A model generated the notes under the pieces. It worked only from the letters and a program-made list of their open reading frames with translations. It had not been told where the DNA came from and did not search any database. From Acidobacteriota bacterium (GTDB lineage Bacteria > Acidobacteriota > Blastocatellia > UBA7656), in assembly GCA_016201275.1 (NCBI GenBank), contig JACQDB010000101.1, positions 1-52,959 on the forward strand: DNA of 52,959 nucleotides. Reading direction: 5' to 3'. Below, piece after piece: positions 38,753 through 42,797 of this stretch. Each line of letters opens with the position of its first letter. Position 1 is the stretch's first letter. Both the position numbers and the translations under genes were made by a program.

Positions 38753-39547
38753 ATGCCTTTGCCATTAATTGATATAGGCGTCAATCTCGGACACGCCTCG
38801 TTCAACGCCGACCGTCAGCAAGTGCTTGATCGCGCCGTGGCGGCGGGTGTGCAAACCATGATCGTCACCGGAACCAATGTGAAAAGCAGCTGCGAAGCGC
38901 AGGAACTGGCCAGCCATTGTCCTGAACATCTCTATGCGACCGCCGGTGTGCATCCGCACAATGCGCGGCATTGCCATGCCGAAACGATGAAAACTTTGCG
39001 GACCTTGGCCAAGCATCAGGAGGTCGTAGCGATAGGCGAGTGCGGCTTGGATTACAATCGCGATTTTTCGCCGCGTCCGGTTCAAGACCTGTGGTTTGCC
39101 GCGCAGATTGAATTAGCCTGCGAGTTGCAGATGCCACTCTTTTTGCATGAGCGTGACGCGCATCAACAATTCGTCAACCTCCTGCGCGGCTATCACAAAC
39201 AATTTCCTGCCGCCGTAGTGCATTGCTTCACCGGCAACGGCGACGAGTTGCAAGCCTATCTGGATATGGGATTGTTCATCGGCATCACCGGCTGGATATG
39301 CGATGAGCGTCGCGGCCAGCACCTGCGCGAACTGGTGCGGCAAATCCCGCTCGACCGCTTGATGTTGGAAACCGACGCGCCGTTTTTAACCCCAAGAGAT
39401 ATGCAGCCGAAACCGAAAGATGGCAGAAACGAACCGGCGTTTCTGCCGCACGTATTGCAAGCAGTAGCAAGTTGCACCGGCAAATCCATAGACGATGTGA
39501 CAGAAGCAACCACGAAGACGGCTCGCGCCTTCTTTCGCCTAGGTTGA
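38753..39547 (+). CDS. tatD: TatD family metal-dependent DNase
   Basis: This encodes 264 residues, the usual length. Blocks are DIGVNLGHASF at the N-terminus (as in E. coli TatD, lacking the HxH of the YcfH branch), ATAGVHPHNA, AIGECGLDYNRDFSPR (metal-binding Glu), LFLHERDA, VHCFTG and ETDAPFLTPRDM. It is a TIM-barrel 3'-5' exonuclease. It lies nine bases after the DinB gene, in the same run. Confidence 0.93.
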   Translation: MPLPLIDIGVNLGHASFNADRQQVLDRAVAAGVQTMIVTGTNVKSSCEAQELASHCPEHLYATAGVHPHNARHCHAETMKTLRTLAKHQEVVAIGECGLDYNRDFSPRPVQDLWFAAQIELACELQMPLFLHERDAHQQFVNLLRGYHKQFPAAVVHCFTGNGDELQAYLDMGLFIGITGWICDERRGQHLRELVRQIPLDRLMLETDAPFLTPRDMQPKPKDGRNEPAFLPHVLQAVASCTGKSIDDVTEATTKTARAFFRLG

Positions 39548-39596
39548 TCTGCGGGAAAAGTTTTTCATCATCCAAAATGAAATTGAGGATTCGAAT

Positions 39597-40592
39597 ATGC
39601 TGAAAATTATCGTTGCTTTCGCACTGCTTTTTATTCTCTGTTTTGGCATCCAGGCAAAAAGTAAAATGACTCCATCACCAAACTCTGTAAACGAGTTGCT
39701 GTGGTGGCTTCCGGTTGACACAGAGACCGTAATGGTGGCGAAAGGCCCTATAACTATCGCCTCATCAGAGCCGGAAAAGTTCATTGATTTCACGCAACGA
39801 ATTGCCTACGGCTCAATAGACTGGGTAAATAAGGGCGACCTGAAACGGCAACTTGAAGGAAAAAAGATATTGCTTTCACTTGAAGGGTGTAGAAAATTTA
39901 GAAGCCCAAAGTCTCTGGGTAGTTCTCCGTATGAAGGTTGTCAAATTATTATTTTTGACAATGATTTTTCTACTGCCCGTAATTCCATCATTCACTCATT
40001 GGAGGTTAGCGCAAAAGCGGTTTTGAAAATTGGTGAATTCAAAGTTTCGGTATTTGAAGAGAAGCTGGAGTCTGACATCTGGGAATTTTATCTGGTCTCA
40101 CCAAAATCTGACATTTTGTTACTCGCAACCGACCAGAGTTATTTGACTGAGGTTTTGAATCGAATGAAAGGGAAAAAAGAGATTCGTGCCCTTCCCGACT
40201 CCCTGAAAGAATGGAAATATGTTGATACAAACGCTCAATACTGGGCGATCAGGCATTATGACATCAATAATTTGGATAAAGACCCAACTTCACCTTTAAT
40301 AGGCATACGAGTAGCGGCTAATTTCCCAGATAAAGAAGCCATTGGCATCGTTTCCATGTTCCATCCTGGTAAACCATTTGTCGTAAGATACCTTTCATCA
40401 AACAAGGACGCTGTAAATATACAAAGAGAATTTTGGACTCCAGATTACTTCGATCCAACTATCCGCGATAAGAAGCCGGACGTTCGGTTGATAGAATTGG
40501 GGATCGTAGAGGTCACTTATTCACCAGACAATCAGACGACTATGACATTATTTCTTTACATGGCTGCGTTTGGTCATGCAATTTTTGTTTAA
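39597..40592 (+). CDS. Secreted hypothetical protein, AT-rich
   Basis: This encodes 331 residues with a signal peptide (MLKIIVAFALLFILCFGIQA). The mature protein opens with MTPSPNSVNELLWWLPVDTETVMVAKGPI, a pattern of proteins with a repeated alpha/beta sandwich, but no family can be named. The DNA is visibly AT-richer than the flanking tatD and vWA genes, with many TTT/AAA/ATA codons, suggesting transfer. It sits immediately before the duplicated vWA gene start and xisHI, at what looks like an insertion-prone spot. TGAGGATT lies before the ATG. Confidence 0.75.
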   Translation: MLKIIVAFALLFILCFGIQAKSKMTPSPNSVNELLWWLPVDTETVMVAKGPITIASSEPEKFIDFTQRIAYGSIDWVNKGDLKRQLEGKKILLSLEGCRKFRSPKSLGSSPYEGCQIIIFDNDFSTARNSIIHSLEVSAKAVLKIGEFKVSVFEEKLESDIWEFYLVSPKSDILLLATDQSYLTEVLNRMKGKKEIRALPDSLKEWKYVDTNAQYWAIRHYDINNLDKDPTSPLIGIRVAANFPDKEAIGIVSMFHPGKPFVVRYLSSNKDAVNIQREFWTPDYFDPTIRDKKPDVRLIELGIVEVTYSPDNQTTMTLFLYMAAFGHAIFV

Positions 40593-40616
40593 CCGGACAA
40601 GACAATTGTAGGAATT

Positions 40617-40760
40617 ATGCCGTTTACTAAATATTCAAAATGGAATGGTGTGGATTGGGAGTCTTTGAGCCTTGAAGACTTGATGGACAAACTCTCCGAG
40701 TTCTTGCTCGACAGTGGTTGCAATGCCCTCACTTTCACAGTGAAGTCTAACTCAAATTGA
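40617..40760 (+). pseudogene. Truncated copy of the vWA gene 5' end
   Basis: The first 34 codons match the start of the vWA gene at 41535 with seven base differences in 102. Five are silent; the sixth affected codon changes Lys to Arg. After GGT the two copies diverge and this one stops at 40758-40760. It keeps a good ribosome site (TAGGA), which the intact downstream copy has lost. It forms the left side of a direct repeat around xisHI. Confidence 0.85.
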
Positions 40761-40775
40761 AAGACAGATTTCTAT

Positions 40776-41192
40776 ATGCCGGCCAGAGACCTCTATCACC
40801 AAAGCTTGAAGCAGGCGCTTATCAAAGACGGCTGGGTCATCACCCACGACCCGCTGCGATTGCAGTGGGGCGTGAAAGATATGTATGTTGACTTAGGCGC
40901 AGAACGAATTGTCACTGCCGAGCGCGCCGGAGTAAAAATTGCTGTCGAAATCAAGAGTTTTGTCAGCGCCTCTGAATTGCGCGACATAGAGAATGCGGTG
41001 GGGCAATACTTTGTCTATTTGGCGGTGCTGAATCGCACTGAGCCAGACCGCCGGTTATATTTGGCAGTGCATAAGGAAGTGTATTTCGATGTTTTTGAAG
41101 AACCGCTCGGGCAACTCTTACGCGAAGATTATCAAGTGCCTATAATTGTTTTCGATGTCGAGGCAGAGGAGATTGTGAAATGGATAGACTAG
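40776..41192 (+). CDS. xisH: XisH family protein
   Basis: This encodes 138 residues with the XisH pattern: AR-DLYHQSLKQALIKDGWVITHDPL, then KIAVEIKSFVSASELRDIENAVGQY. The E-x-K of a restriction-endonuclease-like fold is in VEIKSF, after the Asp in MYVDLGAE. In Anabaena, XisH and XisI are accessory factors for excision of the fdxN element. Most genomes carry the pair without that recombinase, and its general role is unknown. It overlaps xisI by 13 bases. The ribosome site is weak. Confidence 0.93.
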   Translation: MPARDLYHQSLKQALIKDGWVITHDPLRLQWGVKDMYVDLGAERIVTAERAGVKIAVEIKSFVSASELRDIENAVGQYFVYLAVLNRTEPDRRLYLAVHKEVYFDVFEEPLGQLLREDYQVPIIVFDVEAEEIVKWID

Positions 41193-41515
41193 ACACTTAT
41201 CGTCAGATCATCCGCGACGTGTTATTGAAGTATGCTCAAGTGCCTTACGCGCACGGCGAGATTCATATCGAAGCGGTATTTGATAAAGAAGCAGATCGCT
41301 ACCTCTTGATGATTCTCGGACGAGAAAATGACCGGCGGATTCATGGTTGTCTCGTTCATATTGATCTCATCAATGACAAGATATGGATTCAGCGGGACGG
41401 AACCGAAAGCGGCATCGCTTATGAATTGGTTGCAGCGGGAGTACCCAAAGAGCATATCGTTTTAGGCTTTCGCTCTCCGGCAATGCGTCAGCATACCGAG
41501 TTCGCTGCCGCTTGA
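41180..41515 (+). CDS. xisI: XisI family protein
   Basis: This encodes 111 residues. Family blocks are YRQIIRDVLLKYAQVPYAHGEI, DRYLLMILGREND-RRIHGCLVHIDLINDKIWIQRDGTE, and the closing VPKEHIVLGFRSPAMRQHTEFA. It is translated from an overlapping start within xisH, so the two are probably made in fixed ratio. The pair occupies the space between two copies of the vWA gene start and ends 19 bases before the intact vWA ATG. Confidence 0.93.
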   Translation: MDRLDTYRQIIRDVLLKYAQVPYAHGEIHIEAVFDKEADRYLLMILGRENDRRIHGCLVHIDLINDKIWIQRDGTESGIAYELVAAGVPKEHIVLGFRSPAMRQHTEFAAA

Positions 41516-41534
41516 TGGCGCTTGAGAACAGCTT

Positions 41535-42797
41535 ATGCCGTTTACAAAATATTCAAAATGGAATGGAGTGGATTGGGAGTCTTTGAGCCTTGAAGACTTG
41601 ATGGACAGGCTCTCGGAGTTCTTGCTCGATAGCGGTTTCGATGACCCTTATTTCATGTATCGCAACGAGCAAGACAACTCGCTTGAATCTTTGCGCGAAG
41701 CGATGAGGCGCGCCTTGCTTGAAGACGGCCTGCTTTCGGAAGAAGAGTTGCAACAATTCTACGACGAACAAGGCAACCTCAAAATGGAAGCGATGAATGA
41801 ATTGCTCGACCGTCTGCTCGAACGCATGGTCGAAGAGGGCTACATCAAAGTTGACCAACAAGCATCGGGGACGCCGCAGGAAACTCAAGTCACCGCCAAA
41901 GGCGGCAAGACCGGCAAGCCACAGGAAGCGGCTGCCAAATTTGAAGTGACCGACAAGGGGCTTGATTTCTTGGGTTACAAAACGCTCAAGGAGTTGGTCG
42001 CTTCTTTGGGCAAGTCGTCGTTCGGGCGGCACGACACCAATCATCTGGCGACCGACATCGAAGCCAGCGAAGCGGCCAAGCGTTATGAATTCGGCGATGT
42101 CTTGAATCTGGATGTCAGCGCCACTTTGAAATCGGCGATTGGTCGTGAAGGCTTGGGCGTGCCGATCAATCTGGAATACGCCGATTTAATGGTGCATCAG
42201 GCCGAGTACAAAAGTTCCTGCGCGACGGTGTTGATGCTCGACTGTTCGCACTCGATGATTTTATACGGCGAAGATCGCTTCACTCCTGCCAAGCGCGTCG
42301 CGCTGGCGTTGACGCATTTGATTCGCACGCAATATCCCGGCGACTCTCTGCGCGTAGTGCTGTTTCACGATTCCGCCGAAGAGATTCCTATCTCGCAAGT
42401 CGGGCGCGTGCAGGTCGGCCCCTATCACACCAACACCCGCGAGGGCTTGCGGCTGGCGCGGCGCATACTGATGTCGCAACGCAAAGACATGAAGCAGATC
42501 ATCATGATAACCGACGGCAAACCTTCGGCGATGACTATGGCAGACGGGCGCATTTATAAAAACTCTATGGGGCTTGACCCGACGATAATTCAGGAGACCT
42601 TCAAAGAGGTCGCCGATTGTCGCCGCAACGGCATTATGATTAATACCTTCATGCTGGCAGACGATTATTATCTGGTGGAGTTCATCAAAAAGGTGACGGA
42701 GATTTGTCGCGGCAAAGCGTACTTCACCACTACGATGACGCTGGGGCAATATATACTGATGGATTATATGCGACGACAGACGAAGAAGATTTATTGA
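41535..42797 (+). CDS. von Willebrand factor A domain protein
   Basis: This encodes 420 residues. The N-terminal 130 residues are acidic and helical ([30 protein letters not shown]). The C-terminal vWA domain (about 225-400) has a complete [13 protein letters not shown], the Thr in YHTNTREGL and the Asp in IITDGKPS. Such proteins partner MoxR-like ATPases; the likely partner is encoded at 36816. The start coincides with the right copy of the repeat flanking xisHI, and its Shine-Dalgarno is poor compared with the left copy, so translation may have changed after the insertion. Confidence 0.9.

What the first reader, a model, noticed from the sequence alone, without database searches (positions are those of the whole stretch)
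40617..41639. xisHI cassette flanked by a direct repeat of the vWA gene start
The first 34 codons of the vWA gene are present twice, 918 bp apart, with xisH and xisI between. Five of the six changed codons are silent, so the two copies diverged while both were coding. This suggests that xisHI arrived together with the start of a homologous vWA gene, or moves by recombination at gene starts that it regenerates. XisHI are named for excision, but their general mobility is poorly explained.
Basis: partly seen in the sequence, partly recalled or inferred. Interest (0 to 1): 0.8.

Follow-up and report, generated by a model that had tools for sequence, protein, structure and literature searches.

The report
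Gene-end-duplicating xisHI mobile cassette
The small xisH-xisI gene pair behaves like a mobile element that lands inside the end of a host gene and leaves behind a second, broken copy of that end while the host gene stays whole, a trick so far described mainly for cutting enzymes in fungal mitochondria.

Summary
The repeat is real: 40615-40737 and 41533-41655, 123 nt, 89% identical, 918 nt apart, xisH and xisI between them. It is not peculiar to this locus. Six of the 7 xisH copies in this genome have a repeat of flanking, mostly neighbouring-gene, sequence, though two (L002, L007) are weak. Across 218 cassettes, 33 have a strong flanking repeat, against 14 of 8671 mismatched flank pairs. At one Nostoc gene end (isochorismate synthase), 6 of 31 loci carry complete xisHI, 4 carry relics and 21 show none. 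One protein search finds a displaced gene end in 7 of those 10 and in 0 of 21. It starts at the same codon and, in three different backgrounds, runs on into the native downstream DNA of empty relatives. xisHI is younger there than its host gene. I conclude that xisHI is a site-specific mobile cassette that inserts within a gene terminus, which ends up duplicated. Homing by the XisH nuclease is the likeliest engine, inferred, not shown. A foreign vWA start arriving with xisHI is not established: attached ends do not track xisHI in Nostoc, and the silent-change pattern is not decisive at this locus.

The parts
39597..40592 (+). 331-aa hypothetical protein upstream of the site (no Pfam match)
   Evidence: ORF list, hmmscan
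40615..40737 (+). copy 1: displaced start of the vWA gene (codons 1-34 clean, diverged beyond)
   Evidence: direct repeat D1; codon comparison
40617..40760 (+). 47-codon ORF that begins as the vWA gene and ends 15 nt before xisH; possible leader for xisHI (inference)
   Evidence: ORF list; sequence
40776..41192 (+). xisH, PD-(D/E)XK-type nuclease family protein (138 aa)
   Evidence: PF08814 181 bits; PDB relatives 2inb, 2okf; D39 and E58-x-K60 invariant in 10 aligned XisH
41180..41515 (+). xisI (111 aa), overlaps xisH by 13 nt
   Evidence: PF08869 146 bits; PDB relatives 3d7q, 2nlv
41516..41532 (+). 17-nt spacer between xisI and the attached gene start
   Evidence: sequence; repeat begins 17 nt after the xisI stop
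41533..41655 (+). copy 2: attached start of the intact vWA gene
   Evidence: direct repeat D1
41535..42797 (+). intact host gene, VWA_2 domain protein (420 aa)
   Evidence: matches in 36 of 57 relative genomes besides the window's own, some of them partial or split

Best explanation
xisHI is the core of a very small mobile element (xisH, xisI and a few tens of flanking bases). It inserts at a fixed point inside the coding sequence of a host gene, close to its start or end. The host gene stays whole because a complete copy of the terminus stays attached to the gene body on one side, while a second, displaced copy of the same terminus lies on the far side of xisHI. SHOWN by sequence: the repeat; its recurrence; empty and filled sites with one insertion codon; native downstream DNA continuing after the displaced copy in three backgrounds; relics; one allele with two nested displaced ends; xisHI less diverged than its host gene. 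INFERRED: the XisH nuclease cuts the empty allele at or near that codon, and repair from an occupied allele copies xisHI in (homing), the displaced copy being renewed from functional gene ends. In the window the host gene is vWA and, by analogy, copy 1 is the displaced native start; its start codon may help to express xisHI.
For: Own genome: flanking repeats at 6 of 7 xisH copies, about 123 (L001), 13 (L002), 60 (L003), 29 (L004), 92 (L006) and 29 nt (L007); none at L005. Survey: 33 of 218 cassettes score >=34 against 14 of 8671 mismatched pairs and 10 of 1048 local segments; both gaps to the cassette are <=100 nt in 24 of the 33. Nostoc isochorismate synthase end, 31 loci: 6 complete, 4 relic, 21 none; displaced end in 7 of 10 against 0 of 21 by one protein search, starting at residue 435 after the same cassette tail. 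DNA after the displaced end matches DNA after the gene in empty relatives from the first base: L286-L285 97.8%/400 nt, L299-L298 96.3%/298, L308-L307 94.8%/400. Displaced against attached end in six loci: 40 silent and 4 nonsilent codons (P=1.7e-5 against local duplication with decay). xisHI is more similar than the gene body in 10 of 10 pairs without L113. L279 holds two nested displaced ends. Second site, a SNF2-type gene in the Nodosilinea genus: 2 of 20 loci occupied, both with a displaced end.
Against: 185 of 218 cassettes show no strong repeat, nor does L005 in this genome. Over 18 coding repeats, two of them from the isochorismate synthase site, changes are 77 silent to 71 nonsilent, which ordinary decay of a locally duplicated end explains. 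In Nostoc displaced ends are on average slightly closer to their own attached end (0.931) than to empty genes' ends (0.913), and in L314 the displaced end is closest to its own attached end. Attached ends do not track xisHI (0.88-0.95 against 0.954-0.988), so the gene end is not simply cargo. Bases around the insertion codon are nearly the same in occupied and empty alleles, so no protection from cutting is visible. No cleavage was shown. Loci from one site are not independent, and the 30 Nostoc loci are the best matches to a query from an occupied genome.
Confidence: 0.55

Rival explanations
1. Insertion with long target duplication, without homing: a linear xisHI fragment is captured at a long staggered break, which duplicates some 13-190 bp. 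Insertions within genes survive only where the duplicated stretch restores the gene end. Later the spare copy decays.
For: Repeat length varies and no inverted repeats bracket the cassette in the window. Near-identical copies exist, as expected for a recent event: L003 59/60, L143 98%, L132 95%. Over 18 loci the changes are 77 silent to 71 nonsilent. Displaced ends in Nostoc are on average slightly closer to their own attached end than to others. The same anatomy is reported for restriction-modification genes (PMC2749054, passage read).
Against: At the Nostoc site one codon is hit in several backgrounds and the spare copies differ almost only silently (40:4, P=1.7e-5). The SNF2 copy L098 has 19 silent and 2 nonsilent (P=0.005), or 19 and 4 with the junction codons counted, and is closer to another species' gene end (0.911) than to its own attached end (0.880).
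Confidence: 0.25
2. Passive spread: xisHI sits in a recombining gene and is carried between strains by ordinary homologous recombination through the gene body and the displaced end. XisH has another job, such as helping a recombinase, and does not drive its own spread.
For: Attached and displaced ends both sit at background divergence and do not track xisHI. No protective recoding at the insertion point. XisH and XisI are described as helpers of XisF excision (PMC4853749 and PMC4874684, passages read).
Against: xisHI is less diverged than the gene body across species that differ by several percent. Two nested displaced ends in L279 suggest that the same point was invaded twice.
Confidence: 0.15
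3. An excision-type element moved by a large serine recombinase (XisF-like) in trans, the repeats being attachment sites.
For: xisH and xisI are required for fdxN element excision (cited in PMC2674450, passages read). The genome encodes one large serine recombinase (PF07508) on another contig.
Against: The repeats are pieces of different host genes, of variable length, with no common core by eye. No recombinase lies in the window cassette.
Confidence: 0.03
4. Assembly artefact or ordinary tandem duplication unrelated to xisHI.
For: None found.
Against: The two copies differ at 7 bases in 34 codons. The pattern recurs in other genomes and goes with xisHI.
Confidence: 0.02

Closest known systems
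Mobile endonuclease ORFs (mORFs) with gene-end duplication in fungal mitochondria (Allomyces atp6; Glomus atp6, atp9, cox2, nad3)
   Same: An endonuclease gene inserted near a gene end; the host gene keeps a complete end; a native end is displaced (about 1 kb downstream in Glomus atp6); the native end differs from its relative's only synonymously there (PMC3630166, passages read).
   Different: Those use LAGLIDADG or GIY-YIG enzymes in mitochondria and the attached end is foreign; here the family is XisH (PD-(D/E)XK) plus XisI in bacterial genomes, gene starts are also used, both orientations occur (L006 is inverted), and a foreign origin of the attached end is not proven.
Restriction-modification genes inserted with long target duplication (Nobusato et al. 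2000, seen only as cited in PMC2749054)
   Same: Nuclease-bearing cassette with long duplications of the target.
   Different: No methyltransferase here; repeats lie at gene termini; one site shows the same insertion codon in several backgrounds.
fdxN-element xisF/xisH/xisI of Anabaena
   Same: Same two protein families, XisH and XisI.
   Different: No XisF in the window cassette; developmental excision is not implied.
Insertion sequences
   Same: Small, multi-copy, direct repeats at the ends.
   Different: No transposase in the cassette; repeats of no fixed length; no inverted repeats bracketing the cassette in the window.

Membership tests
XisH / XisI protein families | Pfam PF08814 and PF08869 above curated cut-offs | tested here: met
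   181 and 146 bits against cut-offs of 25
PD-(D/E)XK nucleases | D...E-x-K active-site motif | tested here: met
   D39 and E58-x-K60 invariant in 10 aligned XisH (motif pattern recalled); XisH is listed as a known superfamily member in PMC1189080 (passage read). Activity not tested
Free-standing homing endonuclease element (mORF type) | Occupied and empty alleles at one insertion point | tested here: met
   Nostoc: 6 complete, 4 relic, 21 without, of 31 loci, one codon; Nodosilinea genus: 2 of 20 loci occupied
Free-standing homing endonuclease element (mORF type) | Displaced gene end next to the element, intact gene on the other side | tested here: met
   7 of 10 occupied or relic loci against 0 of 21 others by one protein search; an eighth, L113, by a 36-nt DNA match
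Free-standing homing endonuclease element (mORF type) | Attached end is of donor origin and travels with the element | tested here: inconclusive
   Attached ends do not track xisHI in Nostoc; at the acyl-CoA dehydrogenase site the end is among the most similar stretches between two occupied genomes, weakly
Free-standing homing endonuclease element (mORF type) | Encoded enzyme cuts the empty allele and spares the occupied one | not testable with these tools
   No difference within 36 nt of the insertion codon separates occupied from empty alleles
Insertion with long target duplication (restriction-modification type) | Long direct repeat of the target on both sides | tested here: met
Insertion with long target duplication (restriction-modification type) | Cassette encodes a restriction-modification system | tested here: not met
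   In the window only XisH and XisI lie between the repeats
fdxN-type excision element | XisF-type serine recombinase in the element | tested here: not met
   Window cassette holds xisH and xisI only; the one PF07508 match of the genome lies on contig C82
Insertion sequence / transposon | Transposase and terminal inverted repeats with short fixed duplication | tested here: not met
   No transposase between the repeats; repeat lengths 13 to about 123 nt in one genome; no bracketing inverted repeat in the window
Known anti-phage defence system | Match to PADLOC models | tested here: not met
   0 families for either protein at E<=1

The most novel reading that the evidence does not exclude
The XisH-XisI families are a large class of self-spreading bacterial homing elements whose niche is the last or first codons of ordinary genes. 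Each lineage specialises on one gene terminus, cuts empty alleles there, and survives because the host gene keeps a complete terminus while a second one is pushed aside. Their role in fdxN excision would then be a later domestication.
Probability: 0.45. Interest if true: 0.85.

Novelty: new variant of a known kind. Interest (0 to 1): 0.72.

Why it matters
XisH genes are common in cyanobacteria (146 XisH matches, fragments included, in 14 Nostoc genomes), yet the role of XisH and XisI outside fdxN excision was called undisclosed, and their role within it unclear, in papers of which I read passages. A mobility model with empty sites, a fixed insertion codon and a predicted cut site makes the question testable at the bench. 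It would also carry the gene-end-rebuilding trick of fungal mitochondrial endonucleases into bacteria, explain broken gene ends beside xisHI, and warn annotators that such fragments are insertion scars.

Tried and rejected
Foreign vWA start: relatives' starts do not separate the two copies. Not proven, kept as possible.

Protective recoding at the cut site: occupied and empty Nostoc alleles share nearly the same bases within 36 nt of the insertion codon, with no class-specific difference. Rejected.

Attached end and xisHI as one cargo: attached-end identity (0.88-0.95, 15 pairs) is lower than xisHI identity (0.954-0.988). Not supported at that site.

Decoupled gene end as a footprint of repeated homing: a first look suggested it, but with the window left out of the comparison the end ranks 51 of 433 windows, 53 of 433 in empty loci alone, and 233 of 338 in the SNF2 gene. 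Rejected. Low silent diversity at residues 433-444 is matched or nearly matched elsewhere in the gene. Not used.

Silent changes as a general rule: 18 coding loci give 77 silent to 71 nonsilent; only some sites show the excess.

Target-specific XisH lineages: XisH identity is 93% (median) within same-target clusters against 47% overall, but most clusters are one site in related species, so relatedness confounds this.

Acyl-CoA dehydrogenase site: a first comparison was off by one codon and was redone.

Literature: the search for 'xisHI' returned only unrelated names; one search returned nothing.

Dropped rows: cassettes without a recognisable XisI or with short flanks were left out before counting (15 entries, 8), and near-identical cassettes were counted once. 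L007 scored only 16 in the automated survey because its XisH lacks its first codons; its repeat (score 33) comes and was looked at again. In one search one of 19 named loci (L217) fell below the DNA score. Of 53 Nostoc genomes searched only the 30 best-matching loci were analysed, plus L113, which was picked because it is occupied. L113 was left out of my comparison of xisHI with gene bodies because of a one-codon offset. L284 (indel) and L113 (short) were left out of the silent-change count. At the SNF2 site a partial gene end on another contig of G114 was not followed.

Full report
THE OBSERVATION. A 123-nt direct repeat (40615-40737 and 41533-41655, 89%, spacing 918) brackets xisH (40776-41192) and xisI (41180-41515). 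Codons 1-34 differ in six codons, five silent; from codon 35 the copies diverge. Copy 2 begins the intact 420-aa vWA gene. Copy 1 opens a 47-codon ORF that stops 15 nt before xisH. Both xis proteins are clear family members with solved relatives.

IT RECURS IN THE SAME GENOME. Seven XisH matches lie in this genome. Local alignment of the two flanks gave a direct repeat at six: about 123 nt (this one), 13 exact (L002), 60 (L003), 29 (L004), 92 (L006) and 29 nt (L007); L005 has none. L002 (score 26) and L007 (score 33) fall below the survey threshold of 34. The automated scoring counts four of seven, which has probability about 2e-10 at the mismatched-pair rate and 3e-7 at the local-segment rate. 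In L003, L004 and L006 the repeated piece is the end of a gene, not a start.

IT RECURS ELSEWHERE. I collected xisHI loci from relatives, from a scan of bacterial genomes (best 80 of at least 573 confirmed) and from cyanobacterial genomes, mostly Nostoc. Of 218 distinct cassettes, 33 have a flanking direct repeat scoring >=34. Controls: 14 of 8671 mismatched upstream/downstream pairs, and 10 of 1048 same-length segments elsewhere in the same loci, in 3 loci. An earlier local control on the first 121 cassettes gave 23 of 1568 segments in 6 loci, apparently internally repetitive ones, against 20 of 121. A protein-level version gave 33 of 218 against 9 of 2603. Some of the 33 are one site in several species, so independent sites are fewer, and some may be dispersed intergenic repeats. 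185 of 218 show no strong repeat, so the scar is either lost with time or not always made.

EMPTY AND FILLED SITES. The clearest site is the end of an isochorismate synthase gene in Nostoc. From 53 genomes searched with a protein from an occupied genome, the 30 best loci were examined, together with L113, picked because it is occupied. Six have a complete xisHI starting 19 nt after the stop codon, four have relics (L281, L295, L303, L284), and 21 show none. The protein search finds a second copy of the gene's last codons in 5 of the 6 complete loci and 2 of the 4 relics, and in 0 of the 21 others; L113 has a 36-nt DNA match. The displaced copy starts at residue 435 of 471 after an almost constant tail. 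After its stop codon the sequence is that of empty relatives from the first base: L286 like L285 (97.8% over 400 nt), L299 like L298 (96.3% over 298), L308 like L307 (94.8% over 400). One cassette thus occupies the same codon in at least three backgrounds. In L279 a second displaced end lies further out, after what looks like another cassette tail, as if the site had been invaded twice.

AGE AND DIVERGENCE. In the 10 pairs of complete loci without L113, xisHI is 95.4-98.1% identical and the adjacent gene body 90.3-96.0%, xisHI being higher in 10 of 10. Dividing the silent counts by codons, xisH is lower than the body in all ten. So xisHI appears to have spread after these hosts diverged. Displaced against attached ends in six loci (five complete, one relic) differ in 40 silent and 4 nonsilent codons. 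Decay of a local duplicate, even with half the changes in the functional copy, gives P=1.7e-5 (loci not fully independent). The displaced ends therefore look recently taken from functional genes. Against a simple donor-cargo scheme, attached ends are as divergent between occupied genomes as between empty ones (means 0.915 and 0.917), and displaced ends are slightly closer to their own attached end (0.931) than to empty genes' ends (0.913).

OTHER SITES. In the Nodosilinea genus, 2 of 20 loci of a SNF2-type gene are occupied and both have a displaced end; the other 18 show neither in the stretch held (two contigs end early; in G114 a partial gene end on another contig was not followed). In L309, which is L098's locus, the displaced end differs mostly silently (19 silent, 2 nonsilent; 19 and 4 with junction codons) and is closer to another species' end (0.911) than to its own attached end (0.880). 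In L314 it is decayed (10 silent, 7 nonsilent) and closest to its own attached end. In the window's own family, the acyl-CoA dehydrogenase end is occupied in G000 and G002 (xisHI 78% identical over 742 nt), with a displaced end only in G000; three other genomes show no xisHI there. Its displaced end is 0.906 identical to its own attached end and 0.917 to G002's end. Over 18 coding repeats together, two of them from the isochorismate synthase site, the changes are 77 silent to 71 nonsilent, which fits a mixture of fresh and old, decaying scars.

THE WINDOW SITE. Of 58 genomes searched with the vWA protein, 37 matched, the window's own included, and only the window has a second copy of the start. 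No relative has an XisH match on its vWA contig; in G003 that contig ends just before the gene start. In G002 the vWA gene follows the DinB-family gene directly, without the TatD gene, the 331-aa gene or xisHI. The window site is therefore read by analogy: copy 1 the displaced start, copy 2 the attached one. Silent changes alone do not decide it (P=0.23), and relatives do not tell which copy is native.

MECHANISM. XisH carries the D...E-x-K signature and is listed as a PD-(D/E)XK member in print. [quoted passage not shown] another calls their roles unclear. I propose that XisH cuts the empty allele near the insertion codon and that repair from an occupied allele brings xisHI in. That step is inferred. 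The insertion point reads nearly the same in occupied and empty alleles within 36 nt, so immunity would need XisI, methylation or another rule. Long target duplication without homing, and passive recombination, remain serious rivals.

COMPARISON AND NOVELTY. The anatomy matches mobile endonuclease ORFs of fungal mitochondria, where a gene end is duplicated downstream of an inserted endonuclease gene (PMC3630166, passages read), and resembles restriction-modification genes inserted with long target duplication (PMC2749054, passage read). I found no paper describing this for xisHI. The searches were in an open-licence library that lacks most subscription journals. Of the 12 papers I read passages of 6; the XisF-XisH-XisI structure paper was not held.

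Noticed in passing
window 38753-40592: A TatD-family gene and a 331-aa hypothetical gene lie between the DinB-family gene and the vWA site; in relative G002 the DinB-family gene is followed directly by vWA, so this stretch was also gained or lost.
   Followed up: partly
L089, L090, L092, L095, L252, L265, L276 (upstream of xisH): Seven cassettes share an upstream neighbour ORF; the example shown contains a LAGLIDADG-like stretch (motif recalled, not tested), possibly another homing-type gene next to xisHI.
   Followed up: no
L041, L260, L269: Tandem xisHI: an XisI-like or XisH-like ORF directly beside the cassette; two XisH matches lie 763 nt apart in G015 C20.
   Followed up: no
L281, L295, L303, L284: Relics of xisHI at the Nostoc isochorismate synthase end: two keep only the first bases of xisH, two keep a displaced gene end.
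   Followed up: yes
L005 (own genome C130): XisH with an internal TAG stop and no flanking repeat: probably a dead copy.
   Followed up: no
L007 (own genome C88): XisH lacks its first codons; a 29-nt repeat of the neighbouring gene end abuts the truncation.
   Followed up: partly
L132 (Candidatus Parabeggiatoa): 159-nt, 95% identical repeat around xisHI that is not clearly part of a long gene, perhaps a recent intergenic insertion.
   Followed up: no
G114 C266:20162-20287: A partial SNF2 gene end (79%) on a contig other than that of the gene itself: possibly a third displaced end at this site.
   Followed up: no
L349 (own genome C82:2036-2392): The only PF07508 large serine recombinase match of the genome, on a contig without a listed XisH.
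   Followed up: no
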